Shown here in pieces: positions 22,376-50,196 of a DNA stretch of 52,768 nt. The position numbers and the translations under genes were made by a program. How positions within the stretch are numbered: the first letter of the stretch is position 1; the number at the start of each line of letters is the position of its first letter. The DNA is taken from positions 1 to 52,768 of the IMG/VR virus record IMGVR_UViG_3300030104_004723; one strand, 5' to 3'. The notes below the pieces were generated by a model. That model was not told where the DNA came from and did no database searches. It saw only the letters and a program-made list of their open reading frames with translations. Origin of the DNA: a virus.

Positions 22376-22389
22376 AAAGAGAGTAAATT

Positions 22390-23979
22390 ATGGCATCGCC
22401 AAAAATGAGATTATTAGGAATCGAAGGACAACCAGGCTTACAGGCATGGGGGCTTCACCCAGGACCACAATCAGCTAGACCTGGAGAAAATCCATGGGGG
22501 AGAGGAACATTAGCTGTCCATCCTAATGTAGTTCCAGATGCGATTTTTTCAGAAGTTGGAATGCCAGGAGGTACAGGAGTTGCTGCTATAGGAGGAAGGC
22601 CTATCGTTAATGCAAATATACAGCCATTTAGCTATGATAGAGCTGTAAGTCATGGATTAAGTGGAGGTCATAGTGGATTTATTGGAATAGGTTCTAAGGC
22701 AGGTACTTATAGAGAAGGCATTCAAAAAGAAGCTGACAGGTATAGTGGGCAATTTAGACAACATTGGTATGACCCTTATATTCATGCTGCTATAGACTCA
22801 CCTATAAAAGATGTTCTACAAGCTACAACTGCTCCTGCTGCAAATATACTTCCTCAAAATGTAGTTCAAGGGTATACAGGTCCTAGAGGAAGCTTTGCAC
22901 ATGGCGCAAAAGTTTTAGCTCCTGTTGCTTCTAATGCAGCAGTTGATGTAGGGGGTCTTGCTCAAGATTTAGAATGGGCTGAAAAAGATTATACTCAAAG
23001 TTTAGCAAATTTAGATACTCAAAGAGGATTTACAGCTGATAAAGAAGCTTTTATTGAAACAAGAAGACAAGAATATGATGAGGACATTCAAGATGTAGAA
23101 GCTGAAAAAGGAAGAAGAAGTGCAGATTTTGAAAAATCAAAAATAGCTGCGCATAAAACTAGAATGGAAGCATTAAGAGGTGGGGCTACAGCTAGAAGTG
23201 CTTTATTACTAGGTAATTTAGCTGGATATGAAAAAGCTCAAGCACCTATAGCTAGGTCTGGATTTGCTAGCTCAGGTCCTGCTCAAGCTGCATTTGAAGC
23301 ATCTCAAGCTCCATTGCAAGAAAGATTAAGAGCATCTACAACAGGACAAAGAGATGTTGAAACAAAATTCCAAGATAAAATTGGAGGCTTAGAAGATAGA
23401 TGGTCAGAGCAACAAGTTGGTTTTCAACAAAGAGTACAAGATATTGAAAGAATGAAAGATGATTTAGCAACAGAAGAGCTTGATATTCAACAAGAATATG
23501 CAGCGCATGACCTTGAAGAACAAAAATTAGGTAGAGGATGGAGAGATAGTAAAAGAGGATATATCAAGGGAGTGATGGACCTTTCTAAAGCAGTTGGAGA
23601 AGATATTTCTTCAGTATCTGATTGGATTGGAAGTATCACAGGAGCTCATAAAAAATTCGGAACAGCTTTAGATGAAAGTATGGTTTGGCCAGGCACAGAC
23701 CAAGGTTATCGTTTTAGAATAAGAAATGAACATAAAGCCAATATAGCTGGTCAGCAAACTTTTGGCGCTCCTACAGGCGGATGGTTTAGAGAAACTGGAG
23801 GCTTGCAAGGAGTTACAGCAGGTGAAAAAGATGTTCAAGCTGCTCAAATGTTTGGAGATTATTTAGGAAGATTAACAGAAGCAGATTTTGCTAAAACAGC
23901 ATTAGGTGATGATTGGCAAGATTTAGGAGTTGGTGATATTGATTATGGTGAGCTAGAAGAAGGTGGCGGTAAGCCGTAA
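22390..23979 (+). CDS. Internal virion protein candidate with long coiled coil
   Basis: The 529-residue protein has a Pro/Gly-rich N-terminal third (residues 1-170), a long charged coiled coil (about 195-390, interrupted near residue 265 by an Ala/Gly-rich part) and a mixed C-terminal part. It has no enzyme motif or export signal. It overlaps the next gene at the stop (TAATGAG). Its position before the giant proteins matches the inner-core or ejection protein operon of podovirus-like phages. The assignment is by context. Confidence 0.5.
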   Translation: MASPKMRLLGIEGQPGLQAWGLHPGPQSARPGENPWGRGTLAVHPNVVPDAIFSEVGMPGGTGVAAIGGRPIVNANIQPFSYDRAVSHGLSGGHSGFIGIGSKAGTYREGIQKEADRYSGQFRQHWYDPYIHAAIDSPIKDVLQATTAPAANILPQNVVQGYTGPRGSFAHGAKVLAPVASNAAVDVGGLAQDLEWAEKDYTQSLANLDTQRGFTADKEAFIETRRQEYDEDIQDVEAEKGRRSADFEKSKIAAHKTRMEALRGGATARSALLLGNLAGYEKAQAPIARSGFASSGPAQAAFEASQAPLQERLRASTTGQRDVETKFQDKIGGLEDRWSEQQVGFQQRVQDIERMKDDLATEELDIQQEYAAHDLEEQKLGRGWRDSKRGYIKGVMDLSKAVGEDISSVSDWIGSITGAHKKFGTALDESMVWPGTDQGYRFRIRNEHKANIAGQQTFGAPTGGWFRETGGLQGVTAGEKDVQAAQMFGDYLGRLTEADFAKTALGDDWQDLGVGDIDYGELEEGGGKP

Positions 23980-26162
23980 TGAGCGTAGATAGTTTAAAAG
24001 CAACGTTAGGTTTATTAGACATAATAAATAAAACATATGCTAGTGTTAATGAGAATAAAAGAATTAATGCTGAATATCAAAATTATGATGCTAAACTTAA
24101 TAGCCTTGCTGGCCGTAAAGCAATAGAACAAGAAAACAAAACTATGGCAGAACTAACAGCTGCTAAAGCTTCTAATGACTTAAAAGTATCTAAAACAAAT
24201 ATTAAAGACAGAGTAGATGATTTAAGGCAATGGAATATTAGTTTAGATAATATAGATACTGGATTAAAGTCTCATTTAAAGACACAAGGCTTTGAAGATT
24301 TTGCCAATTTTAGTATTAATGATTTAGATGAAAATCTTACATTTGATTATCAAATAGCTAATGATTCAAAAACAACTTATGAAAATATGACTAATGCAGC
24401 AAACGCTAACGCTCAAGTTATTTCAGCTCTCGATGGTATGATGATGCAAGTTGAAGGTTTAAAAAGTGAAGTAGCTAATGTAGGATTTAATGCTGGTATT
24501 CAAGAAATACAAGATTATGCAGATTTTGAAACATATGTAAATAGCCCTGATAATGCAGCTTTATTTAAACTACCAAAATTAGACGCTAATGGTAATCCAC
24601 TATATATAACTCATGATGATGGTAGTACTTCTATAGATTATAGTGAAAATAATAACTATTTAGGGGATGCATTCTTAAGAGAACAAACTGAAGTTGATAA
24701 AAATCCTATAGGTTATGTTCCTACTCAAACTGATATTAATGCTGCCATACTACAACGTGGAACTGAAGAAAAGAAACCTGAATTTACACAAGAGCAATTA
24801 GATGATATGTCTTTAATGGAAGTTAATCAAAGCTTAATAGATAATTCATTTAACCTTATAACTTCTGCAGACTTTACTAACCTACCTGATGATATGAAAA
24901 AATCAATGACAGATTTAAGTGGATTAAATATATCAACTAATTATTTATCAAAGGATGCTGGTTATAATAAAGAAGAAATATATAGTAGAGGTAAAGAACT
25001 TTACAATTTAACTGCTAAAAATATAGACACAATATTTTCTTATTTAGCTAATGATATAGACCCTGCAGGTTTTAATGTTAGAGATTGGGTTGGCAGAGGA
25101 GTTGAAAGTAATTATCCAGAAATATATAAAGCTTACGAAATGGGATTATTTGAAGGTAATTATAGACCAGGTGAAAGCGAAGCTCATATGATTGGAGGAT
25201 TTGATAGTGAAGGCAGACAAACTTATCAAGGATATATTGGAGGTAAAGGTCAAGACGGATTGTTTGTATATAAAAACGATTTAGGTAATTGGACTTTTGA
25301 TGAAGATAAATACAGAGCAGTAGCAGGAAAAATAGGGGATGATTCAAGTGAAGAAGTCATTAAATACTTAAGCCAAAATATATTAATGGCTAAAAAATTA
25401 CAAGATGCTTCTCCATTAGATATAGGATATTTGCATTCAATGGATAGTGATGCATTTCAAAAAGCTTTAGAATATGATTTAAAACTTAAAAATGGTGAGA
25501 TAGAACAGTATGAAGCTGATGCTTATTACCAAGGTATAATGAACAATAACAACAATCAAGATGTAGGTGCTATAAATGAATCGTTAAATAATATGAGCAA
25601 TAATAGTAAGCTTGTTGGAAGTGAAAATATAAACATGGAAAATTCAGCTGCTATAGATTATAGCAATGTGTTAGAACCTAAAGATTATTTAACTACAACA
25701 CCAGAAGAAGCATTGTTAGATTCTTTAAACTTTATTCAAAGCCAAATACCTGTACAAAATAATTTATTTACAGAAGAGCATGGAGCTTCTACGAAAGTTA
25801 ATGAAAATTTAACATCAGGGCAAGCTTGGAAGCAAAAATATATGGAAGATAGAAAAAAGCCTGTTGGTAATCAGGAACAGATGAATAGGCAAGCTCAAGA
25901 CCGTTATATACAAGAAAACTATCCAAATATGAAAGCATTTACTAGTGAAGATATATATAAAAAATTAGCTAATGACCCTAGATTTCAAAAATTAGATAGT
26001 TCTAAAAGAGTAGATTTAAGGTCAAATATAATAAGTGATGTTATTGATATGTATGGTAATATGCCAGAAGAAGATATACACAATTTAGATAATCTTGCTA
26101 AAATAGATAATATTATAGAAAAATTTTTGAGTGAATCTGATGCATCTAAGTATAAAAATTAA
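23979..26162 (+). CDS. Internal virion protein candidate, helical, 727 residues
   Basis: Almost entirely helical and hydrophilic, the protein is rich in Asn, Asp, Lys and Glu. No membrane helix or catalytic motif is seen. Gln/Asn-rich stretches lie near the middle and the C-terminal 150 residues. The gene is coupled to the 529-residue protein by overlapping stop and start and precedes the giant protein by 18 bases. Taken with its neighbours, it is probably part of the inner core ejected with the DNA. No family recognised. Confidence 0.5.
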   Translation: MSVDSLKATLGLLDIINKTYASVNENKRINAEYQNYDAKLNSLAGRKAIEQENKTMAELTAAKASNDLKVSKTNIKDRVDDLRQWNISLDNIDTGLKSHLKTQGFEDFANFSINDLDENLTFDYQIANDSKTTYENMTNAANANAQVISALDGMMMQVEGLKSEVANVGFNAGIQEIQDYADFETYVNSPDNAALFKLPKLDANGNPLYITHDDGSTSIDYSENNNYLGDAFLREQTEVDKNPIGYVPTQTDINAAILQRGTEEKKPEFTQEQLDDMSLMEVNQSLIDNSFNLITSADFTNLPDDMKKSMTDLSGLNISTNYLSKDAGYNKEEIYSRGKELYNLTAKNIDTIFSYLANDIDPAGFNVRDWVGRGVESNYPEIYKAYEMGLFEGNYRPGESEAHMIGGFDSEGRQTYQGYIGGKGQDGLFVYKNDLGNWTFDEDKYRAVAGKIGDDSSEEVIKYLSQNILMAKKLQDASPLDIGYLHSMDSDAFQKALEYDLKLKNGEIEQYEADAYYQGIMNNNNNQDVGAINESLNNMSNNSKLVGSENINMENSAAIDYSNVLEPKDYLTTTPEEALLDSLNFIQSQIPVQNNLFTEEHGASTKVNENLTSGQAWKQKYMEDRKKPVGNQEQMNRQAQDRYIQENYPNMKAFTSEDIYKKLANDPRFQKLDSSKRVDLRSNIISDVIDMYGNMPEEDIHNLDNLAKIDNIIEKFLSESDASKYKN

Positions 26163-26180
26163 TTTATAAGGGTATAGTAT

Positions 26181-29100
26181 ATGGCTGATAATTTTATTGG
26201 CTACACTTACAAAGAGTTAGCCGAGCTTTTAAGAAAAGCAAATCCAGGGATGTACAACAATACAGAAGACGTAGAGTTGGTTAACAGCTTTAAAGAATCA
26301 CAACCTAATATGTTTGATTCTGTTGGTGGTTGGGATAAAGCTATTAACGAACCTGGTATATTCCCAAGAATGGGGTATAGGCTGAAAAATACATGGGACA
26401 ATCTTTCACTTTTTGGATTACCTGCAGTAAAAGAAACCGTTCTTAATGCAGTAAATGTTAAACCTGACGAAGAAACAGATAAATTAATTAACACTCCAGG
26501 AAGTATTTTTTCCCCAAAAGATGTTGACCCTAATCAATTTAGACATCTTAACTCAGAAGCATGGCAAAACTTAGGTCAAGAACATTATGTTCCTTCTAGC
26601 ATTCCTTACAGAGATGAAAATTTATCTGTAAAATATAAAACAAATGGCCCTCATTTTAGTATGCATAGTAATGAATTTAATACTTATGGATTAGATAATG
26701 TTGCATTAAACAATTACTGGGCAAATAAAGAAAATAATTACAACATGTCAGATGCATTAAATGGGCTAGAACAACAAAAAAATACAATAAGAAAAATGAA
26801 TGTTAATCCTGAAAGTCCTCAATTTAAATTATGGGCATCATCTGCTATGGCTTTAGAAGATATACATAAACAAACTGAATCTATAGATGAGCAAGGAAGA
26901 TATATTTCTAATGGATTAGGAGAACCTTTATTAGTTGAAGGTATGATAGAAACTAATGAAAGAAACTTTGCTAATTTAGTTTTAGGGCCTGATGCAAGTG
27001 TAGATGAAAAAGAAAATTATATTAATTCTTTATCTTATCATAGATGGTCTAATAAAAACAAAAAAGGAAGAAAAGACATTATAGATGAAGATGGTTTTGG
27101 ATTTGATAAAGCTTTAGAAGAGTTTGATAAAAAACTAGAAGATGATATGGCTTATAAAGCTTGGTATCAATATACTCAATCAAGTGGTAGTGTTTGGGAT
27201 AGAATGGAACACAACGGAATTAAAGAATTAGCCCCATCTTTTGTTGATGCTTTAAGCAGTATGCTTCCTGGTATTGCAACTGCAATAACTTTAGGAGGAA
27301 CAAATTTACTTGCTAGAAGAGCTGGATTGCCTGGAATTCCTTTACCTGTTATAACTGAAGCTACTATGCAAATGTTAACATTACAAGACCATATTGGGTC
27401 TTCTAAAGAAGCAATACAACATTTAACTAAATCAAGCGTAATAACTCCAAATCAATATGAAAAAGAAATAGCTGAATATGAAAAAGAATTAAGAGATAAA
27501 AAGATAACAGGTATTGCATTAAACAATATATTAAGTGAATGGAAAAACAGAACCTATTCTCAAGATGAAAATGGCAATATTCTCAAACAAGGTATTAGTA
27601 CTGAAGATGCATTATATACTACATATGCAAGTAGAGTTGGTTCAAGTATTTTTACATATGCAGTAGAAAAAAAATTAGGGTTTGGAAGACTTATGAAGCA
27701 GTATGGAAATCCTGGTAGAAAATATGTAGGTAAAACTTTTGGAGAGAATTTCCAGAATAATCTTAAAGATAGAATTCAAAAAATACCTGGAGCTAATAAT
27801 ATATTTAAGTCTAGCTCTGCTCATATATCAGTATTTAAACCTATTTTAAAAAATACAGCTGAACAATCTCTTGAAGAAGGTGTTCAAACTGTAGGACAAA
27901 CATGGTTTCAATCTTCTAGTTCACCTTTAGGATATAAAGAAGAAAGCTATACTGACTTAATTGATTGGAATGAAATATCTGAAGCTATGTTAGGAGGTGC
28001 TTTATTAGGAGGTGGATTAAGTACTGTTGGAAGTACTTTTAGTAATACAGAACTATCAGAAAGATTTGCTAACTGGAAAGTAAGTAAAATGCCTTATGAT
28101 TTCTTTCAAAATACTGTTCAAAAATTAGACAATGGTAATTATGGTATTTTTATTAAAAGCCCTACGTTTAAAACGGATGAGGGTGGAGCTGTAATATATG
28201 ATGATGATGGAAAAATTCAAATTGAAGGTGAAGACTCTAAACAAATACCTGGTGAAGATATGGAGTTTTCAACTTTTAGAGAAGCCTTTGCTGTTGCTGA
28301 AGCTCAAAACAATGACGTTAAAAGACAGTTTGGAAAGCTTGCTGCAAAAGAAGGCTTGTATAACGATTGGGCTAATGCTAAAACTAAAATTAAAAAGATA
28401 AGTGAAGATAGTTGGACTGTTGATGTGCTGTCAGAAACAGGAAATGTTTTAAAAACTGTAACTTTTAATAATAAAAATCAAGCTCAAAATTTTAAATCAA
28501 AACAAGAAAGCTTTATCGCAGATGTTGAGCTAGATATTGAAGAAGCTGAAACTACAAAAAAAGATAATGAAATTGTTGTTAACAATATCGTAACTGAAGA
28601 TGACCAAGGTAATGTTATTTCAGTAAATGATGACTTGTTATTTTTAGCTGGAAACTTTGGAGGAAGGCTTACAGGTAAAGCAAGAGATGCATGGGAAGAA
28701 TATCTGTCTGTGAATGAAGTTCAAAACGAAAAGGATGTATCTAATCCTGACAAGGTTCTTGATATAATTAAAAGACATGGTTGGGATGCTTTAAATGCAT
28801 TAAAGATGGATAAGCCTACGTTCATGGAGAACTTAACAGATTGGGAATATGATGAGCTTTTTCCAGAAGCTTACAATGAAATAGATAATATACTTACTGT
28901 CCCTACTGAACAAGAAACAACTTTAGATGAAGATACAGAAGTAAGAGATGATGACAGCGCTGGAATAGGAAGAGAAGATAGAGACATTATTGATTTAGAA
29001 GATGATGTAGTAGCTATTGATGATGATATCGAAATTACCCCTGAAGAAGAAAGCAAATATGACTTAGAAGTAGATGAAAGCTTTTCTGATTTAACTGATG

Positions 29101-32100
29101 AAGACTTAAGAGAAGAGTATCTAAAATCTAAAGTAAAAGGAGATGTTGAATCTGCATTAAAAACTACTAATCTTAGAACAGAATTAAAAGCTAGAGGATT
29201 GTCTGTTCCTAGAGTTACTAAAAAGGTAAAAGAAAGATTAGAAACTGAAGCTGTTGATACAAGAAGGCCAGAAGAAGTTTTTGATGCATTTGAAACTGAT
29301 GAACAAAAAGCAGGGAAAAAATTTGCTCAAGAATTTTTAAACAATAACAAAGGCAGTGCATTAGGTTTAATGCAAGATTTAGATTCAAAATTAACTAATG
29401 AATTAAAAAGAGATAAAATTTCTAAAGAATTTTTTGATGCTGCTAAAAAAGAAATGAAAAGACTTGCTGAAAAAGAAAAGCAAGATGAGAAAGCTGGATT
29501 GAAATTACGCATTAAGGTTAATGCAAGTAAACAAGAAGAATTATTTGAAAAAGAACCAACTGGATATGAAAATCTTAAAGATGACGAACTAATTGCTAAG
29601 TTAAAAGAATTTAGAAAAAAAGTTGATGTTACATCTGCGGTAGAATCTACTCAAGTTTTAATAGAATTAAAAAGAAGGGGCATACCTGTTCCTAAAAAAG
29701 ATGCTAAGCAAATAATAGATGAACAAGCACAAAGAGATAGGGAAGATGTCTTAGATTCAAAAGAAAGAAAAAGAGAAGAAAGAGAAAAGTTTGTAGATGA
29801 TACTGTTGATTTCTTAAAAGAAAAGTTTATAGGACCTGATGGAAAGCCTTTATTTAATATCGTTAAATTAAATGAGACTGAACAAGACTTACCTGAAAAT
29901 AAATGGAAAGGAAGATGGGAAGAAGAAACTAATACTATGTATCTTAACCCTAAGTATTTTGATAGAGATACTGCATTGCATGAATTTGCTCATCCTTTTA
30001 TAAGAGCTATAGCTAACTCAAAAGGTGGGGTTGATATAATAAACAGTATATATGATGAAGTAGTTAAGGCTGATAAAGACGGTGAATTATATGACATAGT
30101 TATGAAAGGTTATGTAGAGACAGGAGATTTTGAAGAAGGTAGTTATGAATTTAAAGAAGAGCTAATAGCATGGGCTTTAGGTAGAGCAGCAAAAAATATT
30201 AAGGTTCAATCTCAAGAAGCACAATCTAAGAATAAACTAATTATTGCACTTAAAAAGTTTTGGAAAGCTTTAAAAGAAATTGTATTTGGAAAAGATGCAC
30301 CTTTATATCATGAGCTATACAACTTTGTTAAAGATGGTGTTACTTTTGATGATATGGTAAGTTTTCTTGCTGATTCTCCTGACAAAATATCTATTCAAGA
30401 CTTAAGTGTATTGTCTCTTGAAAAAGCAAATTCTCGTAAAGGTTTTGAGTTAATTGAATCAAATCCTATAGAAGATAATGTAGCAAGAGATTTTAATCAA
30501 AATTATCTATTACCAGCTGTGCAAAATGAAGTTTTACCTGCTGTTATTTCTATCTCAAAGACTACTAATAAATCTAAAAGAAAATTAAAAATAAGCAAAT
30601 TTCGTAGTTCAGTAATAGAAAATTTACGTAAAAAATTTAATATCCCTAAAAATTTAAATCTTGATGAATATGAAAAAGAATCTGTAGCAAGAACTTATTC
30701 ATTTGATGGTGCACAAGGTGAATCAAATGCTTTAGGTATTTCTAAAGCAATAACTAATTGGGTTACTGATTTGCAAGTTGAGCCTCTTACTGATTTTAAT
30801 ATTATTACAGACATGGAACTTGCAAGTATGTCAAAAGAATTAGCTGAAGAAATTAATAAAATAGGTATGTATGTTTTAAATCAAGTTAGATTTAAATATC
30901 AATTTGTAAATATTTTAGGTAGTGTAGAAAATTGGAGCAAAGAATCTATAAATAAAAAATTAAATGCTAAAAAAACAATGCTACCTGCAGCAGAAAAAAG
31001 AGCCATAAAACAATGGATGAAACAAAATATAGATTTAAAAGATAACAATATTGTGCTTGCTCAAAGCTTAATAGAGAGCTATAAAGCTTTTGTAAATAAA
31101 AAATACCCTATATACACAGGTATACAAATAAAACAAGATAGTCCTAATGATTATATACATATAGATAGTTCTTTAAGAGGAGACCTTGACACAAGAGCCA
31201 TATCAGCTTCAGCTGAAGAAGATGTGTTGATGGACCCAGAATTTGCTCCGTATGTTGGAGTTCCTTCAGAAAGAATTATGTTCTTTACATCTCCACATAG
31301 CACAGTTCAAACTCATAGGCCTCATTATGCTGATTTTCCAGGAACTGATAAATCTGTAGGAGCAACTGGCTGGTATAGAGTATCTTCTGTTCCAGGATAT
31401 GATGATATATTTGCATCTATGGAATACCAAAGCGACTATTTTAAAAATATCTACAGAAATCACGGAGATGTAATTAGCTTTATAAAAGACCCTGAAAAAT
31501 TTATAGAATCTAAAATGATAAAACTAGAAGATACAAATCAATATATTTATAGCAGAATGGCTTTTAATGAAATGTTTTCAAATGTATGGAATGGTGTTTA
31601 TAATAATATATATAAAGATAAAGAATCAGATATGTTACTTAACCTTCCAGATAATATGAAGAAATTTAAAGTTAAATATAAAGGTAAATTTCTTAAAATG
31701 TTGTATGATAATGTTTATAAAACTAATACTGATTATAATGAATTTTTAAAAATGGTTAATAAAGAGACTCAAGATGTTCTTTTGCATAGTTTATTTAGTG
31801 AAGACATTTCTAGAGCTTTTTCAGTAGAATTTATAAAGCTTATTGAAAAAGGAAAGTCTGTAGAATCTGCTTGGAATATTATTTCTAATATAATTGAAAA
31901 TGAAATGATTGAAAGTGTAGAGACAACACATACTCTTGTAGAGAATGACAAATCTCTTATAAAAACATATTTTACAAATGCACTTAGCCCAGATATAGAC
32001 AATCCTATGCTTACCAGTAAAGAAGAACGTCAAGCACTATTTAATGAAGGTATAAAAACTGCTGATTATTTAATAAAACTTTTTGAAACTGGAGTTATAA

Positions 32101-35100
32101 ATGACCAATTAGAATATCATTATAAAAGTTTTTTATCTCAACTTATTAGAAAAAGTGTAGCGCAAAATAGTTATGCATATAGTAAAATTAAAAATAAAAA
32201 TAAAATTGCCTCTACATTAAAAGAAAATTATGAAAAAGGCTTAGTGACAACTGAAGATATGTTAAATAAAGTTTTATCTATAATTGATTCTAATGAACCA
32301 GGAATGCTTGATGTTATTGTTCAGATGCATTCTGTAGAAAAGTCTTTCCATAAAATAAGAGTATTGCATTCAATACAAAATATGGTAGCAAGACAAAAAC
32401 CTAATTCAACAAGCCCTGTTTACATATCTTTAGGTGCAGCAAATGCATTGCAACAAACACCAGGCTTTGCTAGTGATGTTACACACCCCTCGTATAGTTT
32501 TTATGCAACTAAAAATGAAAATGCATGGAACAATATATTAAATTTATTAGATGAACAAAACAAAGAAGATGGTAATATAGTAAAAGAATCTATTAATCTT
32601 ATAATTCAAAAATTAGGAGATTTATGGAATAATAAAGATGGAATATCTAACGAAGAATTTATGAACTTTTTTAGTAGAGCTGTTAATCAAGGTAATATGT
32701 GGTATGGTAAGTCTTCTGATATGGTTGCTATGCAAGATTTTATCATTAAAGAAATGGTTGTAGAAGATAAGAAATTAAAAGGAAGAGATTCAAGTTTCTT
32801 TAAAGAATCTAGAAAGGTTTTAAATGAACTACAAAATGCAGGTTTAATTTCTTGGAAAGTAGTTACTCCTGAATGGGGTCGAGCTTCTTTTATAGAAATA
32901 ACTCCCTTAAATAGACCAAAGCTGTTAGGTTACAAAGGTTCAAGATTTCAAAAGGTATTAGATTCTGAATCTATAGATTTAACAAAACCTAATGAAGAAG
33001 GAGGCGTTTATGACAAGGTTAATAAAAGAATTAGCTATCAAAAAATAGATGACCCTAGGTTGGCTAGAAATGCTGCAATAAATCATATATTTAAAGAAGC
33101 ATGGATAGATATTAATAGAGTTGAAAAACAAGCTAGAGGATTTAACACTATTATAAATCCTGATAGTTTTAGAATTGCTATGCTTGAAACATTACCTACG
33201 CAAGAATTAAAAGACAGGTTTGTTAAATGGTACCAAGTTAATATAATAGGTAAATATACTGGACTAAAATATACACAAGAATCTATAGGTAAAGATGTTA
33301 AGGATTTACTACCTCCAGATAATACTCAAGATGCTATAGTTGATTTCTTTAATGACCCTGACATAAGAGAAGGTATGCATGAAATAGCAGAAAAAAATGA
33401 ATCAGATGAAAGAGAAATAAATGCCAATGAATATTCTTATGATAGAGAGTTTGGTAAGCATGTAGAAAAAGATGATGCTGTTGATTTTAACAATAAAGCA
33501 TATGAAATTATGAAAGACCCTAATATTCCTGTTGATAAATGGCTTCAAACTTGGGTTAGTTATGTTTCTAAAAAAATTAGTAAACGTTCTTATACTATTG
33601 ACCAACAATTAAATCAAATGAAAAAATTCAATAGACTGTACAGCAATATAGCTGTTAATACAGAAAATGGTAATTATAATGAAAGAAATCAATTTTATGC
33701 TGTAATAAAACAAACAGACGAAGATGGTAATATAGTAGAAATAGACATACAATTAAAAGGACCTGATAATATAACAGCTAATGGTAGTACTAATTCTAAT
33801 AAATCAAAAATAACTCCATTTGAAATGAACAATAAAAAAGGTGTTTTTTCATGGATTGATGGTAGTGATTTCTTAACTTCTCAAAATGTTAAAGATAACT
33901 TAGGTAGATTTGTAGAAGAAACATACGAAGATAGAAGTGGAATCATACAAACAAAAAGAAAGAAAGAATTAAAACCAAGATATGAATTTTTTAATGCTCA
34001 AGAATTAGAAGTCTTAGAAACTGCATTAAATAAAATGGGCTTTACAATAGCTTTATCAAGAGGCGATTCTTCTAAGTTAGGCATTGTAAGTATAGACACA
34101 TCTCATTTAAAAGAAGCTAGTAGTGCACAAGCAGCTTTAAATTATTTTAGAAAAGAAATAGAAAATGGTTCTATTCCTATGGGAGAATGGTCTGTGGATG
34201 ATGGTATAATGAAGAATCCACATGTAGCTAATATGATGAAAGGCAATGTAGCTGCTAACATAGCTGTGCATGAAGCATTTAAAAAAGTATTTCCTAATTA
34301 CTTAAGTATAAACGCTGCAACATTTGCTAAAAGAATCAAATTACCTTTTACTCCAATGACTATAAGCCCAACTATGCCTAACGTTACTATGTATATAGCT
34401 AATAAAGAAAATTTAGTATTTAAATATAGAGATAAAGAAATACCAGGCTTTCAAACTGTACAAGGAGTAGACAATCTTTATATAGGAGATGGCGGAAGTA
34501 TTACTGCTAAACAATTATTTGAAAAATTTGAAAACCATCATGGTTTAATTAAAGGTCAAGCTAAAGCTAAAACTGTTATATATAGAAATCAAAACGATGA
34601 AGGTATTGCAGTAAAACATCAGCATTATCAACCAGAATCTTTTATAGAAATATGGGAGGGAGATACTTTATTAGCAAAGGTAGATAAAAAGGGTAATTTT
34701 ACTGAAGGAAAAGCAGCTGGTTTAGATATGATAATCACAGACGATGAAGCTAAATGGATGTATGGAGCTGACATTAATGTAGGTAATGTGGTAGAAGTAA
34801 GTGGTCAAGATATAGGTTTTACTAAGTATTCTGATAAGAAAAAACCTCAAAAATCAAATCATTTAATGCAATGGTATAGTTTTGTTTATGAGCCAGAAAT
34901 GATACAAGCATTTAAAGATTATATGCTGCAAGATGTTAAAAATAAATTTAAAGAAGCTTACAGACCTTTTGCTGAGCCTACTAAAAAAAGTTCTCAAAAA
35001 GCTATAAAAGATATTATAAGTAAAATTGATTCTAATGATGCAGAAGGATTTAGAAATACCTTAGTAGAATTAAATAACTTAGGAGTTATATGGCAAATAG

Positions 35101-36938
35101 AACCTATGTTAAATGTATTATACCAAAATAAAGTTTTAAATCCTAAATTAAGAATGAAAGAACAGCCAGGAACTAAAGCTGATTTAGCTCCTAATTTAAG
35201 AGGAGATTTAAATCCTGGAGAAGCAGCTTTATCTAAGGAAAATGCAGATGAAGTTTATTTAAAGTATGCTGCAGTAAAAGATTTAACATTAGCACAAGCT
35301 AAAACAACAAAATTAAGTGTAATTAACGATTGGTTAAAAGAAACTCCTGTTAATATGTTTATTGCCAGAACCCCTGTTCCTCACGTTGGTGGCACTATGT
35401 TAATAAGAATTAAAAGATTACATGACAGAAAAGGCTTAGTAGAGCTTCATCCGTATGATGTATTTGCTAGATTAGAAGGTGACTATGATGGTGACTGGAT
35501 TACTATGGAATCATTACCTTGGTTTTATGAAAACGGTCAATTCATATCTCCTATGGAAAATTCTATTGCAAGATTTTTTGAAGGTAAAGATGTAAAAGGT
35601 ATTAATTTAGGTGAATTTGATAATTCTATGGGCGAATTACAAATGTCAAATAGATTTGATAGATACGAATTAATAGAAGCTATGACTTATAATAAACAAG
35701 GAGAAGTAGCAAATATAATTAATGTATATGGAACGTTAGTAAATACTGTAAATAGTATAGAGATTAGTGGAAGAAAAATACTTATTAAACCACCTAATGA
35801 AAAAAGAAGATGGGGAGCTAAAGTTAAAAGAAAACCAGTAGTAAAAAGTATGGGAGAAATATTAAGATACTACATGCAAGCTTCAGTAGATAATGCTAAA
35901 TATATGTTGCTTTCAGAATGGGGTTACACTCAAGACATGGTAACAAGAGCTTTATTTAAATATGAAAATGGACAAACTATATCTGAAGATGATTATGAAT
36001 CTTTAAAACCTCTTATTAAGTTTTTAAAATCAGCTACTAATATTATGAGAGGACAAGATTTTACATTAGGGAAATATAATACAGCTAAAACTATTGCATT
36101 AAGTGGTGAGTATTATGCATTTACTCAAAATAAAAATAGTTACGTTAAAGAAAATATAGGAGAAATAAATTATGATACAGGAGAGCTTATTCCTTCAATG
36201 AGTCATGTTAATATTGATTTTAAGAATACAATTTCTCCAGTTGAAGAAATAGCTATACTTCCATATGTTGAATTTGAAATATGGCAAAATAAATTTGATA
36301 TTATAGGTGCTCACGAATGGCCAGGAGGTATTCATTACAACGTTCATAGAAATGCACATATAGATGGTTTAAATTTTATTAATGATAAACCTATGTTTGA
36401 TGAATTTTTTCAAAATGCTATATCAAAAGATAGAAAAGAAAATATTGTAGGGCAAATAGAAGTTAATAAAAAATGGGGAAATATTGAATTTAAAAGTGAA
36501 AGCGATTGGGCTCTTAGACAATGGAAATTTGGAGAAGCTTACACAGATTTAATGGCTTTTAAATGGTACAATCTTATGAATTATGCTGAATTAAATGGTA
36601 AGCCTAATTTCATGGAACAAAATCAGAAAGCTTTAGAGTTTAAAACAGAATTTAACAAAAGATATAAAAAACTTTCTAGTGTTTCTAAAATGGCAGCAAC
36701 TTACTCTTTTCTTAATGGTGCAGTTTTAACTATGCAGGAACAACATTCTAAAGCTCCTAAATGGTTTCCTCCATCAAGTGATAAAGCAGTAGAATTTCAA
36801 TTGCTTGAAGAAAATATTTTAAGTAATTTTGTAGATGTTTATAATGATAATGTTGGTAAAAATAGAAATATGAACAGTCGATTTGATAATGTTATAGATT
36901 TAATGTATAAACAATATATAAAGGAAAGCTGTGGCTAA
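26181..36938 (+). CDS. Giant virion protein with zincin and two-barrel RNA polymerase core
   Basis: This single frame of 3585 residues shows three features. (1) Residues about 350-380 and 600-617 are Gly/Ala-rich hydrophobic segments of the kind that may enter membranes. (2) HEFAH at 1267-1271 with EE at 1326-1327 is a zincin metallopeptidase motif. (3) Residues about 2765-3110 carry both halves of a double-psi beta-barrel RNA polymerase: GDGGSIT (from 2769) followed by KGQAKAK (2791-2797), and then RTPVPH, a LHPYDV segment and D3101-Y-D-G-D3105, the metal-binding loop of the beta' / YonO / QDE-1 type. Long acidic coiled-coil linkers separate them. The size and position (last part of the virion operon) match polymerases carried in the virion, as in N4 and crAss-like phages, although N4 uses a T7-type enzyme. 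It probably transcribes early genes after injection. Confidence 0.8.
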   Translation: MADNFIGYTYKELAELLRKANPGMYNNTEDVELVNSFKESQPNMFDSVGGWDKAINEPGIFPRMGYRLKNTWDNLSLFGLPAVKETVLNAVNVKPDEETDKLINTPGSIFSPKDVDPNQFRHLNSEAWQNLGQEHYVPSSIPYRDENLSVKYKTNGPHFSMHSNEFNTYGLDNVALNNYWANKENNYNMSDALNGLEQQKNTIRKMNVNPESPQFKLWASSAMALEDIHKQTESIDEQGRYISNGLGEPLLVEGMIETNERNFANLVLGPDASVDEKENYINSLSYHRWSNKNKKGRKDIIDEDGFGFDKALEEFDKKLEDDMAYKAWYQYTQSSGSVWDRMEHNGIKELAPSFVDALSSMLPGIATAITLGGTNLLARRAGLPGIPLPVITEATMQMLTLQDHIGSSKEAIQHLTKSSVITPNQYEKEIAEYEKELRDKKITGIALNNILSEWKNRTYSQDENGNILKQGISTEDALYTTYASRVGSSIFTYAVEKKLGFGRLMKQYGNPGRKYVGKTFGENFQNNLKDRIQKIPGANNIFKSSSAHISVFKPILKNTAEQSLEEGVQTVGQTWFQSSSSPLGYKEESYTDLIDWNEISEAMLGGALLGGGLSTVGSTFSNTELSERFANWKVSKMPYDFFQNTVQKLDNGNYGIFIKSPTFKTDEGGAVIYDDDGKIQIEGEDSKQIPGEDMEFSTFREAFAVAEAQNNDVKRQFGKLAAKEGLYNDWANAKTKIKKISEDSWTVDVLSETGNVLKTVTFNNKNQAQNFKSKQESFIADVELDIEEAETTKKDNEIVVNNIVTEDDQGNVISVNDDLLFLAGNFGGRLTGKARDAWEEYLSVNEVQNEKDVSNPDKVLDIIKRHGWDALNALKMDKPTFMENLTDWEYDELFPEAYNEIDNILTVPTEQETTLDEDTEVRDDDSAGIGREDRDIIDLEDDVVAIDDDIEITPEEESKYDLEVDESFSDLTDEDLREEYLKSKVKGDVESALKTTNLRTELKARGLSVPRVTKKVKERLETEAVDTRRPEEVFDAFETDEQKAGKKFAQEFLNNNKGSALGLMQDLDSKLTNELKRDKISKEFFDAAKKEMKRLAEKEKQDEKAGLKLRIKVNASKQEELFEKEPTGYENLKDDELIAKLKEFRKKVDVTSAVESTQVLIELKRRGIPVPKKDAKQIIDEQAQRDREDVLDSKERKREEREKFVDDTVDFLKEKFIGPDGKPLFNIVKLNETEQDLPENKWKGRWEEETNTMYLNPKYFDRDTALHEFAHPFIRAIANSKGGVDIINSIYDEVVKADKDGELYDIVMKGYVETGDFEEGSYEFKEELIAWALGRAAKNIKVQSQEAQSKNKLIIALKKFWKALKEIVFGKDAPLYHELYNFVKDGVTFDDMVSFLADSPDKISIQDLSVLSLEKANSRKGFELIESNPIEDNVARDFNQNYLLPAVQNEVLPAVISISKTTNKSKRKLKISKFRSSVIENLRKKFNIPKNLNLDEYEKESVARTYSFDGAQGESNALGISKAITNWVTDLQVEPLTDFNIITDMELASMSKELAEEINKIGMYVLNQVRFKYQFVNILGSVENWSKESINKKLNAKKTMLPAAEKRAIKQWMKQNIDLKDNNIVLAQSLIESYKAFVNKKYPIYTGIQIKQDSPNDYIHIDSSLRGDLDTRAISASAEEDVLMDPEFAPYVGVPSERIMFFTSPHSTVQTHRPHYADFPGTDKSVGATGWYRVSSVPGYDDIFASMEYQSDYFKNIYRNHGDVISFIKDPEKFIESKMIKLEDTNQYIYSRMAFNEMFSNVWNGVYNNIYKDKESDMLLNLPDNMKKFKVKYKGKFLKMLYDNVYKTNTDYNEFLKMVNKETQDVLLHSLFSEDISRAFSVEFIKLIEKGKSVESAWNIISNIIENEMIESVETTHTLVENDKSLIKTYFTNALSPDIDNPMLTSKEERQALFNEGIKTADYLIKLFETGVINDQLEYHYKSFLSQLIRKSVAQNSYAYSKIKNKNKIASTLKENYEKGLVTTEDMLNKVLSIIDSNEPGMLDVIVQMHSVEKSFHKIRVLHSIQNMVARQKPNSTSPVYISLGAANALQQTPGFASDVTHPSYSFYATKNENAWNNILNLLDEQNKEDGNIVKESINLIIQKLGDLWNNKDGISNEEFMNFFSRAVNQGNMWYGKSSDMVAMQDFIIKEMVVEDKKLKGRDSSFFKESRKVLNELQNAGLISWKVVTPEWGRASFIEITPLNRPKLLGYKGSRFQKVLDSESIDLTKPNEEGGVYDKVNKRISYQKIDDPRLARNAAINHIFKEAWIDINRVEKQARGFNTIINPDSFRIAMLETLPTQELKDRFVKWYQVNIIGKYTGLKYTQESIGKDVKDLLPPDNTQDAIVDFFNDPDIREGMHEIAEKNESDEREINANEYSYDREFGKHVEKDDAVDFNNKAYEIMKDPNIPVDKWLQTWVSYVSKKISKRSYTIDQQLNQMKKFNRLYSNIAVNTENGNYNERNQFYAVIKQTDEDGNIVEIDIQLKGPDNITANGSTNSNKSKITPFEMNNKKGVFSWIDGSDFLTSQNVKDNLGRFVEETYEDRSGIIQTKRKKELKPRYEFFNAQELEVLETALNKMGFTIALSRGDSSKLGIVSIDTSHLKEASSAQAALNYFRKEIENGSIPMGEWSVDDGIMKNPHVANMMKGNVAANIAVHEAFKKVFPNYLSINAATFAKRIKLPFTPMTISPTMPNVTMYIANKENLVFKYRDKEIPGFQTVQGVDNLYIGDGGSITAKQLFEKFENHHGLIKGQAKAKTVIYRNQNDEGIAVKHQHYQPESFIEIWEGDTLLAKVDKKGNFTEGKAAGLDMIITDDEAKWMYGADINVGNVVEVSGQDIGFTKYSDKKKPQKSNHLMQWYSFVYEPEMIQAFKDYMLQDVKNKFKEAYRPFAEPTKKSSQKAIKDIISKIDSNDAEGFRNTLVELNNLGVIWQIEPMLNVLYQNKVLNPKLRMKEQPGTKADLAPNLRGDLNPGEAALSKENADEVYLKYAAVKDLTLAQAKTTKLSVINDWLKETPVNMFIARTPVPHVGGTMLIRIKRLHDRKGLVELHPYDVFARLEGDYDGDWITMESLPWFYENGQFISPMENSIARFFEGKDVKGINLGEFDNSMGELQMSNRFDRYELIEAMTYNKQGEVANIINVYGTLVNTVNSIEISGRKILIKPPNEKRRWGAKVKRKPVVKSMGEILRYYMQASVDNAKYMLLSEWGYTQDMVTRALFKYENGQTISEDDYESLKPLIKFLKSATNIMRGQDFTLGKYNTAKTIALSGEYYAFTQNKNSYVKENIGEINYDTGELIPSMSHVNIDFKNTISPVEEIAILPYVEFEIWQNKFDIIGAHEWPGGIHYNVHRNAHIDGLNFINDKPMFDEFFQNAISKDRKENIVGQIEVNKKWGNIEFKSESDWALRQWKFGEAYTDLMAFKWYNLMNYAELNGKPNFMEQNQKALEFKTEFNKRYKKLSSVSKMAATYSFLNGAVLTMQEQHSKAPKWFPPSSDKAVEFQLLEENILSNFVDVYNDNVGKNRNMNSRFDNVIDLMYKQYIKESCG

Positions 36939-39900
36939 TACAAAATGTAGTATATTAAGAGAAGGGGCTGAAATAAATAAACAGCTTGACGATGCTGTAT
37001 TAGAAGCTCAGATTGATGAGGCTAATTTATTAGGCGTTGAGGAAATAAATCAACTTATACAAGATAACTTATTAGAAAAAGCAATAAAAGTAGGAAAAGA
37101 AAAAGGTATTGATGTAGGAGAAGATACTGAAGAAATAGAAGAAGCTGTAAGGTATTTAGTAGGAGAGTTAGTTCCAGAAGAAAAGATAGACAAAGTAGTA
37201 AAAAAGAATTATGGAGAAGCTGGAGATAGGTATTTATTAGCTACTAAAATAAATGCTTTAGTTAATGGAAATCCTATTATAGGTCAAATGGTTCATGAAA
37301 TGATTTTACAATTTATGCCTTCTGGTAATATTTCATCATCAACATCTCAATGGGTTAAAGGGGAGCAAATAAATGTTCCAAATTTTGCAGGCATTAATAA
37401 AAACCTTACCCCTGAACAACAATTATTAAGAACTTTAAAAGTTCAAGAAATAGGTACATTAAAAGTTATATATAACGAAGCATTAAACATGGCTACTGCA
37501 GGAACTGGAGAAAGCTGGGCAAAAGGAGTTATAGGTAAAATAGTATCTAAATTCTATAATCCTAAAGAAAAAGGTAAAACAGAACGTAGTGGTGCATGGA
37601 TGAAATTTACAAGTCATGCAACTCGTTATTTTAATAATATAGAAAAAAATATAGAATACTTTCTTAAAGATAGAAAAGTAAAACAGCCAGATGGTTCTCA
37701 AAAAACATTTAAAGGAATGGACAATGTTTTAAGAGATGTTAATACATTATCTGAAAAAGTAAATATCAAGGTTCATAAAAACGATTTAAGAACAAAAGGT
37801 GAATTATTTACTGAGTTTTTTGTAATGAATATGACTGGAGAAATTTATTTTGATAAAAAAACCAATAAATTTATGATACATCAAGATTATGGCCCGTTAA
37901 GAGATGCAGATAATAAGGTTAGATTATGGCCTGATGAAACTATAATGCATGGTTTTTCAAATCCTATAGAACTTTCAAAATATAGAAATGGATTATATTC
38001 TGTAAAATTTAAAACTAAATCTCAATTCAATTCTTTTACCAAATTAAAAAATGATGCTACAAAAGTTAATGAAAGAGTATTTAAAGAGACTAGAAAGAAC
38101 TATGAAAATTCAGTAAAACTATTAAAAAAAGCAATAAAAAAACATTTTGTTGGCTTACCTGATGCTCAAATAGAGTTGTTGTTTTTTGAAGACTGGAAAG
38201 TAAAACAACATAAAGAGCTTTTAAATGAACTAAAAGATTTAGATAAAAAAACAGGCACTAAATATATTAATACATATAATCTTTTTAAAGATACTTTCGG
38301 AAATATAGCAAGTGTTAATCTTTATTTAAATAGAGTTAATGAATCTCAAGGCAAGGGACAAAGAAAACATTACTGGCCTACTATATATCCTATACAAACT
38401 ATGACTATAATGTGGGATTCTTATATTGTAGACATGCAAAGAGAACTTAAAATAGCAAAAGATAATTTAGAAAACTTTAGAAAAGGCGAATACGATAAAT
38501 TAATAGCTAAGAAAAAATTAAACCGTAAAGAGTTTAAAAAAGACTTAAAAAAAGAAGTAGCTAAATATAATTCAATAGTTGATAGAGCTATAGAAATAAA
38601 AGACAATAGAGAAAATAAATATAAAGAAGATACTTTATCTGCTAGAGAGATACCTTTTGCTAGAGACCACAGACATTTAAAATCTATAACAAATGCTTTT
38701 GATATTAGATTAGGCAGAAAAGACGGGGCAGTATATAGAGATTATTTAATGCAAATAATGAGTTCTATAGAAAGAAATCTTTTTACAGTATCATTGTTAG
38801 ATAGTATAAATATTGCTCAATCTGATGTTGTTGTTCGAGCATTGGTAAATTATTATAAGGTTCCTTTTGCTGACCCTAGTGTGGAGGGTGGAATAATAAC
38901 TTCAAGTGATGAATCTGTGTCAGCTATGTTAAATAAAGTTGGTATCAAAATATCACCTGAAATTTTAAATAGATTTAACAGAAGAATTAATAAATGGTTA
39001 ACAGCTTCTAAATTAGGCGGAATAAGTACATCAATATTAAATAGAAGTGCTATTGTACACAATATATTAGATAGAAATAGGCAGGAAACTTCTAGAGCTA
39101 AACAAGTTCTTTCAAATAACAGAGAAGAAGTTGAAGAATTTTTAACAAAAATTAATATAGCTGCATTCCAAGATTTTTTTAGTTCAAATTTAATTAATGG
39201 TAAAGCAGGAATTGAATTAGATAATGCTACTATAGGCAAAATATATATGATTATGCTTAATTATCCAGAATCAAAACAAAGATTTAAAAACATGGGTATT
39301 TCTAAGCTAAAAGATTTTCTAATTAAAAACAAAGTTTCTGAAACTAAAATAAAAGCATGGGCTAAAGATAAAAAAGCATTAAATATATTGTCAGAAAAAG
39401 CTTCTGCTATACAAATGCAAAAAGAATTTTCTAAAGTTCTTGAATTGTCTCCTATGTATAATTTAAAAATAAAAAGTATTATGAGTCAAAATGCTTCTAA
39501 AGAAAGATTAAAAATTATAGCTCAATCTAAAAAAGATACAATGCTAAATAAGTTTGTAGGCTTTGCTATTACTCAAGAATACGAATTAAATAGATATGCA
39601 AATATGTTCAATTGGCAATGGACTTTACCTTCTAAAATATATAAATCTACAGGAGATTGGTTTAGCTTTTTAGGAAGTGTTAGGAAATCAGTGAAAATGA
39701 CAATGAGCGATAGTGAAGCTTATATTAGAAGTATATCTGCAATATCTGGAATATTAAAAGCTCAAGAATTAGGCTTTCTAAGAAATGATATAAACTTTTG
39801 GGAGTTTCAAGGTAAGGATTTAGAAGCTGCATCTGAAATAGGAAACTTATTAGCAGACTTTACTAATATGGGATTATCTACTACAGATATGGCTCAAATA

Positions 39901-40602
39901 GGATGGGGTGGATTTGGTAGTATACAGCAAAAATTTAATATATGGGCTCATCAAAGAAGAGGCAGAGAAGCTAATATTGCAAAGTATGCATATATAGCTG
40001 CTCAGGAATTAAAAGATTTAGGTCAAACTAAGTTTTTTGATGGTAAAGCATTATCTAAAATGATTTTACAAGCAGTTAAAGGAAACTTACCTTTTGTTGG
40101 TGAAAGATTAAATACGATGAATGCAACACAAAAACACCAGGCTCATTTAATGAAATTTATATATACGGGAGTTATGCCTGCAGTATTACTTGACCTTGTT
40201 ATATGGGGACCACTAGGAAATATAGCAGGGTTTGCTCTTTTAAACAGGGTAGTTAGAGTAGCAGGATTTGAACAAGTGTTAAAAGGATTACCTTCAGCTA
40301 ACGCTAGATTGCTATCTCTTCCTATAGGATTAGCAATAAAATTTGCTTTAGGAATGTTAGATGGAGATGACGAAGAAGAAGAATTAGGTAACTTCTTTCG
40401 TTATTATTTAAGAGAATTACCAGGAACAGGTTTTGGTATAAGCTGGTCCTTTGACCAAATATTATTACTTTATCATATTTTCTCTGAAAACAACGTAGAA
40501 GCTGTTAAAGTTGGTGTTGATGCTGTTATAGGCCCTATTTCTCCATTACCTACAGTAACTAAAACAATAAGAGGGGCAGCTATTCAAGCTATAGATGATT
40601 AA
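36931..40602 (+). CDS. Large internal virion protein, partner of the giant protein
   Basis: The gene starts with GTG, overlaps the giant gene by 8 bases and has an AAAGGAAA site. The protein has 1223 residues. The first 900 are helical and basic with no catalytic motif I recognise. The last 180 carry three hydrophobic segments (VMPAVLLDLVIWGPLGNIAG, ANARLLSLPIGLAIKFALG, WSFDQILLLYHIF), suggesting membrane contact. Such ends are common in ejection proteins that form a channel through the inner membrane. It would be delivered together with the polymerase. The stop overlaps the stop of the opposite gene at 40599. Confidence 0.55.
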   Translation: MANTKCSILREGAEINKQLDDAVLEAQIDEANLLGVEEINQLIQDNLLEKAIKVGKEKGIDVGEDTEEIEEAVRYLVGELVPEEKIDKVVKKNYGEAGDRYLLATKINALVNGNPIIGQMVHEMILQFMPSGNISSSTSQWVKGEQINVPNFAGINKNLTPEQQLLRTLKVQEIGTLKVIYNEALNMATAGTGESWAKGVIGKIVSKFYNPKEKGKTERSGAWMKFTSHATRYFNNIEKNIEYFLKDRKVKQPDGSQKTFKGMDNVLRDVNTLSEKVNIKVHKNDLRTKGELFTEFFVMNMTGEIYFDKKTNKFMIHQDYGPLRDADNKVRLWPDETIMHGFSNPIELSKYRNGLYSVKFKTKSQFNSFTKLKNDATKVNERVFKETRKNYENSVKLLKKAIKKHFVGLPDAQIELLFFEDWKVKQHKELLNELKDLDKKTGTKYINTYNLFKDTFGNIASVNLYLNRVNESQGKGQRKHYWPTIYPIQTMTIMWDSYIVDMQRELKIAKDNLENFRKGEYDKLIAKKKLNRKEFKKDLKKEVAKYNSIVDRAIEIKDNRENKYKEDTLSAREIPFARDHRHLKSITNAFDIRLGRKDGAVYRDYLMQIMSSIERNLFTVSLLDSINIAQSDVVVRALVNYYKVPFADPSVEGGIITSSDESVSAMLNKVGIKISPEILNRFNRRINKWLTASKLGGISTSILNRSAIVHNILDRNRQETSRAKQVLSNNREEVEEFLTKINIAAFQDFFSSNLINGKAGIELDNATIGKIYMIMLNYPESKQRFKNMGISKLKDFLIKNKVSETKIKAWAKDKKALNILSEKASAIQMQKEFSKVLELSPMYNLKIKSIMSQNASKERLKIIAQSKKDTMLNKFVGFAITQEYELNRYANMFNWQWTLPSKIYKSTGDWFSFLGSVRKSVKMTMSDSEAYIRSISAISGILKAQELGFLRNDINFWEFQGKDLEAASEIGNLLADFTNMGLSTTDMAQIGWGGFGSIQQKFNIWAHQRRGREANIAKYAYIAAQELKDLGQTKFFDGKALSKMILQAVKGNLPFVGERLNTMNATQKHQAHLMKFIYTGVMPAVLLDLVIWGPLGNIAGFALLNRVVRVAGFEQVLKGLPSANARLLSLPIGLAIKFALGMLDGDDEEEELGNFFRYYLRELPGTGFGISWSFDQILLLYHIFSENNVEAVKVGVDAVIGPISPLPTVTKTIRGAAIQAIDD

Positions 40603-50130: not shown

Positions 50131-50196
50131 CCCTTTTTTCACTTTCGGCGACTATTATATCCTATTGCTAAATATAATAACGGCTTCGCTTATTGT

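What the first reader, a model, noticed from the sequence alone, without database searches (positions are those of the whole stretch)
26181..36938. Single-chain RNA polymerase in a giant injected virion protein
The 3585-residue protein carries both barrels of a two-barrel RNA polymerase: DGGSIT (2770-2775) followed by KGQAKAK, comparable with the first barrel of QDE-1/YonO-like enzymes, and RTPVPH plus DYDGD (3101-3105), the metal loop of the second. The same chain also holds a zincin motif and Gly/Ala-rich hydrophobic segments. It therefore may be a polymerase that frees itself or crosses the envelope during injection, similar in concept to N4 and crAss-like virion polymerases but with its own domain set.
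Basis: partly seen in the sequence, partly recalled or inferred. Interest (0 to 1): 0.85.

Follow-up and report, generated by a model that had tools for sequence, protein, structure and literature searches.

The report
Giant injected phage polymerase, cysteine-linked
A marine phage carries, in one 3,585-residue protein that it probably injects into its host, an RNA polymerase of the crAss-phage/QDE-1 type; that protein and its partner contain no cysteine except one at each facing end, which suggests that injected proteins are chained head to tail by sulphur bonds.

Summary
The motifs are real. In 38 family members (18-52% identical to the window) D2770, G2771, K2797, K2812, H2813, R3063, P3065 and the three Asp of DxDxD are invariant. 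The AlphaFold model of residues 2400-3585 (pLDDT 85, pTM 0.84) matches solved two-barrel RNA polymerases: crAss-like phi14:2 virion RNAP first (6VR4, E 6.5e-11), then QDE-1. The zincin (HExxH plus Glu1327) is real and related to zincins fused to or beside crAss-like virion RNAPs. RNAP plus zincin is not new in itself (N4, crAss); order and giant architecture are this group's own.

The surprise is the cysteines. The 3585-residue protein has one, C3584; the next protein (1223 aa) has one, C6. 36/36 distinct family giants (107,423 residues) have exactly one Cys, in the last six residues. In crAss-like phages all three ejected RNAP-block proteins follow the rule: Cys only at facing termini. Split and fused genes gain and lose the pair exactly at the affected junction, even when genes are on opposite strands. 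Best reading: ejected proteins are joined head to tail through thiols, probably disulphides. That chemistry is inferred; no virion was examined.

The parts
26181..36938 (+). giant protein, 3585 aa: N-terminal Gly-rich region, zincin, variable linker, two-barrel RNA polymerase, single Cys at 3584
27243..27305 (+). Gly/Ala-rich weakly hydrophobic segment, residues 355-375
   Evidence: recurs in homologs; below 1.6 KD threshold
27990..28040 (+). second Gly-rich segment, residues 604-620, after the conserved E562/E566/Q569 block
29772..30491 (+). zincin domain, residues 1198-1437 (HEFAH 1267-1271, third ligand E1327)
33378..36935 (+). RNA polymerase module as modelled, residues 2400-3585
34383..34832 (+). 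first barrel (DPBB-B, beta-like), about residues 2735-2884, with D2770-G2771, K2797, K2812-H2813
   Evidence: strands 336-485 of the model
35352..35546 (+). second barrel (DPBB-A, beta'-like), about residues 3058-3122, with R3063-x-P3065 and metal loop D3101-x-D-x-D3105
35877..35894 (+). Q3233-A-x-x-D3237-N block aligned with the crAss gp66 motif N-A-x-V-D-x-A-K downstream of DxDxD
36930..36932 (+). codon of Cys3584, the only Cys of the giant protein
36931..40602 (+). companion protein, 1223 aa (GTG start overlapping the giant gene by 8 nt); hydrophobic segment 1073-1091
36946..36948 (+). codon of Cys6, the only Cys of the companion
20657..26162 (+). three Cys-free proteins (572, 529, 727 aa) directly upstream, candidate further ejection proteins
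   Evidence: role inferred from position and composition

Best explanation
The 3585-residue protein is a virion-packaged, ejected RNA polymerase. Its C-terminal 1,200 residues fold as a single-chain two-barrel RNAP that starts transcription of the early genes on the minus strand as soon as the DNA enters. The zincin upstream of it most likely cuts the giant protein, or a host or virion protein, during maturation or entry. Cysteine has been purged from the protein so that it can be unfolded, threaded and refolded without wrong cross-links. The one Cys left, at the very C-terminus, pairs with the one Cys at the N-terminus of the next protein, most likely as a disulphide formed in the oxidising virion, so that successive ejected polypeptides leave the particle as a head-to-tail chain and are released by reduction in the host cytoplasm. 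Shown here by computation: motifs, conservation, predicted fold, homology, Cys distribution and its change with gene fission and fusion. Inferred: packaging, injection, early transcription, target of the protease, disulphide bond.
For: Invariant catalytic residues in 38 members. Model pLDDT 84.9, pTM 0.84; PDB matches 6VR4 E 6.5e-11, QDE-1 about 1e-7, P23-45 gp64 about 5e-5, then cellular beta' with E>0.01. HHalign to the crAss gp66 family scores 48.3 (51.6 with DxDxD masked) against at most 23.7 for reversed profiles and 21.2 for 30 column shuffles; E. coli beta' falls in register R-P...HP...DxDGD, though not significantly. Zincin HExxH...E; its profile finds crAss-like zincins at E down to 5.5e-15, best reversed control 0.04. 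Cys: 36 distinct giants, 107,423 residues, 36 Cys, all in the last 6 residues; 34 companions, 40,314 residues, 36 Cys, 34 in the first 12. Background in the same window 0.5% (late genes) and 1.4% (minus-strand genes) against 0.03% in 20657-40602. crAss-like: 27 of 35 complete RNAPs have Cys only at both termini and 7 more have both termini plus internal Cys; upstream neighbours 33/33 a single C-terminal Cys; downstream 40/48 a single N-terminal Cys. phi14:2 gp78 C1797, gp77 C3 and C2179, gp76 C3, all annotated as virion proteins by MS/MS. Natural experiments: the split giant in G015 gains the pair (C1515 / C5...C1435 / C6); fused RNAP-zincin keeps only Cys7 and fused upstream-RNAP keeps only the C-terminal Cys; crAss001 gp47, on the opposite strand, still ends with its only Cys, 2339, while gp50 and gp49 begin with Cys5.
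Against: No virion proteomics for this virus. The zincin model has no PDB match with E<1, so the protease rests on motif and profile. Cys avoidance in ejected proteins is general (T7 gp15/gp16, P22 gp7/gp16/gp20, N4 gp50-52 have none), so depletion alone does not argue for a chain, and N4, T7 and P22 manage without one. Five divergent crAss-like RNAPs carry 10-38 internal Cys besides the terminal one. Members are related by descent, so counts are not independent. A thiol pair could bind metal instead of forming a disulphide.
Confidence: 0.75

Rival explanations
1. The protein is a two-barrel RNAP but the terminal Cys residues form a metal site (for example a zinc or iron-sulphur clip between proteins) or a non-covalent contact, not a disulphide.
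For: Two to four thiols from neighbouring copies could bind a metal; ejection proteins are multicopy (crAss001 estimate of 6 copies, PMC10172136). The sequence evidence shows pairing of termini, not its chemistry.
Against: One Cys per side and no conserved His or second Cys near the ends (tails vary freely).
Confidence: 0.2
2. The terminal Cys codons are a by-product of overlapping genes or translational coupling at the DNA/RNA level.
For: In the window the companion's GTG start lies across the Cys codon and the following codon of the giant gene.
Against: Distances from stop to next start vary (about -8 to +13 for clear starts), the partner Cys sits several codons into the next gene, and crAss001 gp47 keeps its C-terminal Cys although its partner gene is on the other strand. 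It does not explain the absence of Cys elsewhere.
Confidence: 0.02
3. The polymerase is made late in infection and is not injected (non-virion RNAP or a primase-like enzyme).
For: No proteomics for this virus; QDE-1-like enzymes can use RNA or ssDNA templates; P23-45 has a related non-virion enzyme that is also Cys-free.
Against: Gene lies in the late structural strand after Cys-free internal proteins; its closest solved relative is a virion RNAP; the neighbouring Cys pattern is shared with MS-supported virion proteins of phi14:2.
Confidence: 0.08
4. The zincin releases the polymerase by cutting the chain between zincin and RNAP after entry, so that RNAP stays linked only to the companion.
For: Intact HExxH...E; a variable linker follows it; autoprocessing has been proposed for polyvalent proteins (PMC5512222).
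Against: N4 vRNAP has a zincin and is packaged uncut (PMC5512222). A subclade (L165, L166, L170, L172, L176-L178) and group B lack HExxH in the giant protein yet keep the architecture.
Confidence: 0.3
5. The RNAP fold is degenerate and no longer catalytic.
For: No activity data.
Against: Every catalytic position is invariant in 38 sequences that are otherwise down to about 18% identical to the window.
Confidence: 0.03

Closest known systems
crAss-like phage virion RNA polymerase (phi14:2 gp66 = KC821624 gp077, PDB 6VR4)
   Same: single-chain two-barrel RNAP fold; profile homology over DPBB-A and the downstream GxxAN and NAxVDxAK blocks; related zincin fused or adjacent; terminal-Cys rule
   Different: DxDGD instead of DFDxDK; zincin and N-terminal part fused upstream of the RNAP in one 3585-aa chain, so one junction instead of two; portal unrelated by profile; related genomes of about 52-58 kb instead of about 100 kb
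N4 virion RNA polymerase gp50 (Schitoviridae)
   Same: about 3,500-aa ejected RNAP with zincin and N-terminal membrane-type domain (PMC12633501); Cys-free, which authors linked to passage through tail or periplasm (PMC2784036, PMC3715699)
   Different: T7-type right-hand polymerase, zincin after the RNAP, no terminal Cys; here a two-barrel enzyme: same plan, unrelated core
QDE-1 (RNA interference RNAP)
   Same: two barrels in one chain, Foldseek E about 1e-7
   Different: eukaryotic, not virion-borne, no zincin, about 10% identity
P23-45 gp96 virion RNAP fused to tail tape measure (PMC10770324)
   Same: two-barrel RNAP inside a giant ejected protein, no Cys
   Different: fused to a siphovirus tape measure; gp96 itself is not among the structure hits, the phage's second RNAP gp64 is
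Polyvalent proteins (Iyer et al. 2017, PMC5512222)
   Same: giant multidomain proteins in virion gene context with zincin; homologs carry swappable helicase, GNAT, 2OG-Fe(II) oxygenase, GHKL ATPase, FtsK-gamma domains
   Different: in the passages of the paper read here the RNAP modules are N4-like T7-type; the two-barrel fusion was not seen in them

Membership tests
two-barrel RNA polymerase | DxDxD metal triad in second barrel | tested here: met
   invariant in 38/38
two-barrel RNA polymerase | two Lys in first barrel | tested here: met
   K2797 and K2812 invariant in 38/38, in adjacent strands 396-405 and 408-417 of the model
two-barrel RNA polymerase | two double-psi barrels in one chain | tested here: met
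   AlphaFold model; all PDB hits with E<0.001 are two-barrel RNAPs
two-barrel RNA polymerase | three Asp and the Lys pair meet in one active site | tested here: inconclusive
   implied by fold match; coordinates not available for measurement
two-barrel RNA polymerase | RNA synthesis | not testable with these tools
   needs purified protein
crAss-like virion RNAP (gp66 family) | sequence homology over the RNAP core | tested here: met
   HHalign 48.3 vs at most 23.7 in controls; not detectable against gp66 alone
crAss-like virion RNAP (gp66 family) | DFDxDK signature | tested here: not met
   EGDxDGD in the window's group; DFDID occurs in G015
Crassvirales | crAss-type portal | tested here: not met
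   profile of 20 portals of this group does not match phi14:2 gp104 or crAss001 gp20; the window portal matches Pfam P22_portal
N4-type vRNAP | T7-like right-hand RNAP domain | tested here: not met
   fold is two-barrel
zincin metallopeptidase (gluzincin-like) | HExxH plus downstream Glu ligand | tested here: met
   H1267 E1268 H1271 25/25, E1327 24/25; 18/18 in A4
zincin metallopeptidase (gluzincin-like) | zincin fold by structure comparison | tested here: inconclusive
   model local pLDDT mostly above 80 up to residue 190 but no PDB match below E 1
virion/ejection protein | present in purified particles and delivered to the host | not testable with these tools
   no proteomics for this uncultured virus
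polyvalent protein | several unrelated enzymatic domains in one chain in virion gene context | tested here: met
   zincin plus RNAP in the window protein; further enzymes in homologs; no Pfam domain recognised in the window protein itself

The most novel reading that the evidence does not exclude
Across crAss-like phages and this separate group of 52-58 kb phages, the large ejected proteins are covalently strung together, C-terminus to N-terminus, by disulphides between the only cysteines they possess. The virion thus delivers a polymerase complex as one chain through the tail and dismantles it by reduction in the host cytoplasm. Gene fission adds a cysteine pair and gene fusion removes it.
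Probability: 0.5. Interest if true: 0.93.

Novelty: new variant of a known kind. Interest (0 to 1): 0.83.

Why it matters
How proteins far wider than a phage tail are threaded through it in the right order is an open question for podoviruses and crassviruses; PMC10172136 says the order is probably set by packing and by interactions between cargo proteins. A strict cysteine rule that follows gene fission and fusion gives a simple, testable answer in cultured phages (phi14:2, crAss001). It also gives a sequence signature for finding ejected proteins and their order in uncultured phages. The polymerase itself shows that the N4 plan, a giant injected protein with zincin and RNAP and almost no Cys, exists with an unrelated polymerase core.

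Tried and rejected
Pfam, PHROGs, NCBIfam and PDB sequence searches with the single protein found nothing useful; the best PDB profile hit was a GNAT enzyme at E 0.03, taken as chance. tblastn against cultured phages with the RNAP module: nothing. Direct search of IMG/VR with the single RNAP module failed; relatives were reached through the portal gene. First HHalign run used a wrong global flag and was repeated in local mode. HHalign to E. coli beta' alone is in register but not significant. Companion and N-terminal regions gave no homology to phi14:2 gp76/gp78 or crAss001 gp47/gp49. Considered and rejected: frameshift fusion of giant and companion (variable overlap); RNA-level origin of the terminal Cys. 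Host: one 13-kb contig in a Flavobacteriales MAG is too weak to assign a host. Papers Yutin 2018 and Drobysheva 2021 were not held, so a remark on terminal Cys there cannot be excluded; none was found in the papers searched.

Full report
Observation. The window is one IMG/VR virus record of 52,768 bases. Sequence-only searches of the protein gave nothing, which is why it looks like an orphan.

Relatives. The portal gene (2658-4931, Pfam P22_portal) brought in relatives, up to 79% identical in the portal, many on contigs of 52-58 kb. Ten of 24 longer contigs encode a relative of the polymerase region. A profile scan with the first ten proteins found 37 loci. The alignment of 38 has 25 invariant columns; among them are D2770, G2771, K2797, K2812, H2813, R3063, P3065, E3099, D3101, D3103, D3105, Q3233, A3234, D3237. 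A second set in the same phage group ('group B', about 3,000 aa) carries more diverged versions, with HQRDxDGDH, EGDFDVDK or DADFDLDK, and profile similarity to the window's group (HHalign score 59.4; controls at most 20.1).

Fold. The 38-row alignment gave a model of residues 2400-3585 with mean pLDDT 84.9 and pTM 0.84. The best PDB match is the virion RNAP of crAss-like phage phi14:2 (6VR4, E 6.5e-11), followed by QDE-1 structures (about 1e-7) and the RNAPs gp64/gp62 of P23-45/P74-26; cellular beta' follows at E>0.01. In the viral library the closest are unnamed proteins at 33 and 26% identity, so the family already sits in sequence databases without description. Profile-profile comparison with 79 crAss-like RNAPs scores 48.3, or 51.6 with the DxDxD columns masked; reversed and column-shuffled controls reach at most 23.7. 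The aligned blocks include RxP, DxDxD, GxxAN and (Q/N)AxVDNAK. I could not measure the Asp-Asp distances. The two Lys lie on adjacent antiparallel strands of the model.

Zincin. HExxH occurs upstream of the RNAP in most members, with a conserved Glu 56 residues after the second His in the window protein. A profile of 18 of these domains finds zincins in crAss-like phages at E down to 5.5e-15, either in the gene after the RNAP or fused behind it; reversed sequences give 0.04 at best. The zincin therefore looks like an old partner of these virion RNAPs. In several members its place is taken by a different HExxH type (HEYAHRKGRGHD, HEYAHI). PMC5512222 reports that N4-like RNAPs are almost always fused to a zincin-like peptidase, so the pairing exists in two unrelated polymerase types.

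Architecture. Between the Gly-rich N-terminal region and the zincin, homologs carry different enzymes: RecD/PIF1-like helicase, 2OG-Fe(II) oxygenase, GNAT, GHKL ATPase, FtsK-gamma. This is the polyvalent-protein pattern, here with a two-barrel RNAP. In the window protein no such enzyme is recognised.

Cysteines. The giant protein has a single Cys among 3585 residues, at 3584; the next protein has a single Cys among 1223, at 6; the three proteins upstream (572, 529, 727 aa) have none. In 36 distinct family giants with a complete 3' end there are 36 Cys in 107,423 residues, every one within the last six residues; 34 companions hold 36 Cys in 40,314 residues, 34 of them in the first twelve. Other late genes of the window have 0.5% Cys and the minus-strand genes 1.4%, so several hundred would be expected in the giants. 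Group B behaves alike.

The same rule in crAss-like phages. phi14:2 gp78 (1797 aa) has only C1797, its RNAP gp77 (2180 aa) only C3 and C2179, and gp76 (1421 aa) only C3; all are annotated as structural proteins by MS/MS. Among 35 distinct complete crAss-like RNAPs 27 have Cys only near both termini and 7 more have both plus internal ones; 33 of 33 upstream neighbours have one Cys, at the C-terminus; 40 of 48 downstream neighbours have one, at the N-terminus.

Tests of the rule. (a) Fission: in G015 the giant protein is split; the upstream piece (1520 aa) has only C1515, the RNAP piece (1435 aa) has C5 and C1435, the companion C6. (b) Fusion behind: in two crAss-like phages RNAP and zincin protein are one chain of 3516/3525 aa; only Cys7 remains and the preceding protein still ends in Cys. 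(c) Fusion in front: in G027 the upstream protein and RNAP are one chain of 3935 aa; only the C-terminal Cys remains and the next protein begins with Cys3. (d) Gene position: in crAss001 gp47 lies on the opposite strand from gp50/gp49, yet has its only Cys at 2339 of 2341, while gp50 has C5 and one eight residues before its end (plus one internal), and gp49 only C5. This argues for a relation between proteins, not between overlapping genes. gp47, gp49 and gp50 were detected in virions (PMC10172136).

What is known. N4-like vRNAPs lack Cys, which authors tied to passage through tail or periplasm (PMC2784036, PMC3715699); I find the same for N4 gp50-52, T7 gp15 and gp16, P22 gp7, gp16 and gp20, and P23-45 gp96, although P23-45 is poor in Cys in general. 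What I did not find described is the retention of one Cys at each facing terminus. The crassvirus structure paper discusses disulphides of tail and portal-vertex proteins only and never uses the word cysteine. Two key papers were not readable here.

Mechanism. Most likely the polypeptides leave the virion as a chain linked by disulphides formed after assembly, pass the tail unfolded, and are separated by reduction in the cytoplasm, which leaves an active early polymerase near the entry site. The fold, the homology and the Cys rule are computed results; packaging, order, bond chemistry and the protease target are inference.

Limits. IMG/VR contigs only; related sequences are not independent; disulphide not observed; the record is probably incomplete; host unknown.

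Noticed in passing
L154, L145, L158, L160, L144, L155 (N-terminal halves of homologs): Swappable enzymes upstream of the zincin: RecD/PIF1-like helicase, GNAT, GHKL ATPase, AlkB-like 2OG-Fe(II) oxygenase, FtsK-gamma, C19orf12-like segment.
   Followed up: partly
L109, L110, L114, L119, L122, L123, L125, L128: Group B: about 3,000-aa giants at the same locus in related phages, diverged DxDxD motifs, no HExxH, same terminal Cys.
   Followed up: partly
L145, L167, L156, L157, L163, L164, L168: A different HExxH type occupies the zincin slot, as if the protease had been replaced more than once.
   Followed up: partly
L165, L166, L170, L172, L176, L177, L178: Subclade with DHDHD instead of DxDGD and no HExxH in the giant protein.
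   Followed up: no
L231, L232, L235, L244, L247: Divergent crAss-like RNAPs with 10-38 internal Cys that still keep the terminal Cys; might reflect an anaerobic setting.
   Followed up: no
window 20657-22375: C-terminal SDERLKKNI... resembles a peptidase S74 intramolecular chaperone end; not tested with a profile.
   Followed up: no
window 1-400 and 52768: No terminase large subunit or DNA polymerase noticed; left end cuts an ORF, so the record is probably incomplete.
   Followed up: no
L260: A 13-kb contig binned in a Flavobacteriales MAG (TMED123) encodes a relative; weak host hint.
   Followed up: no
window 50195-50271: tRNA-like hit with four-base anticodon (tata), type unassigned.
   Followed up: no
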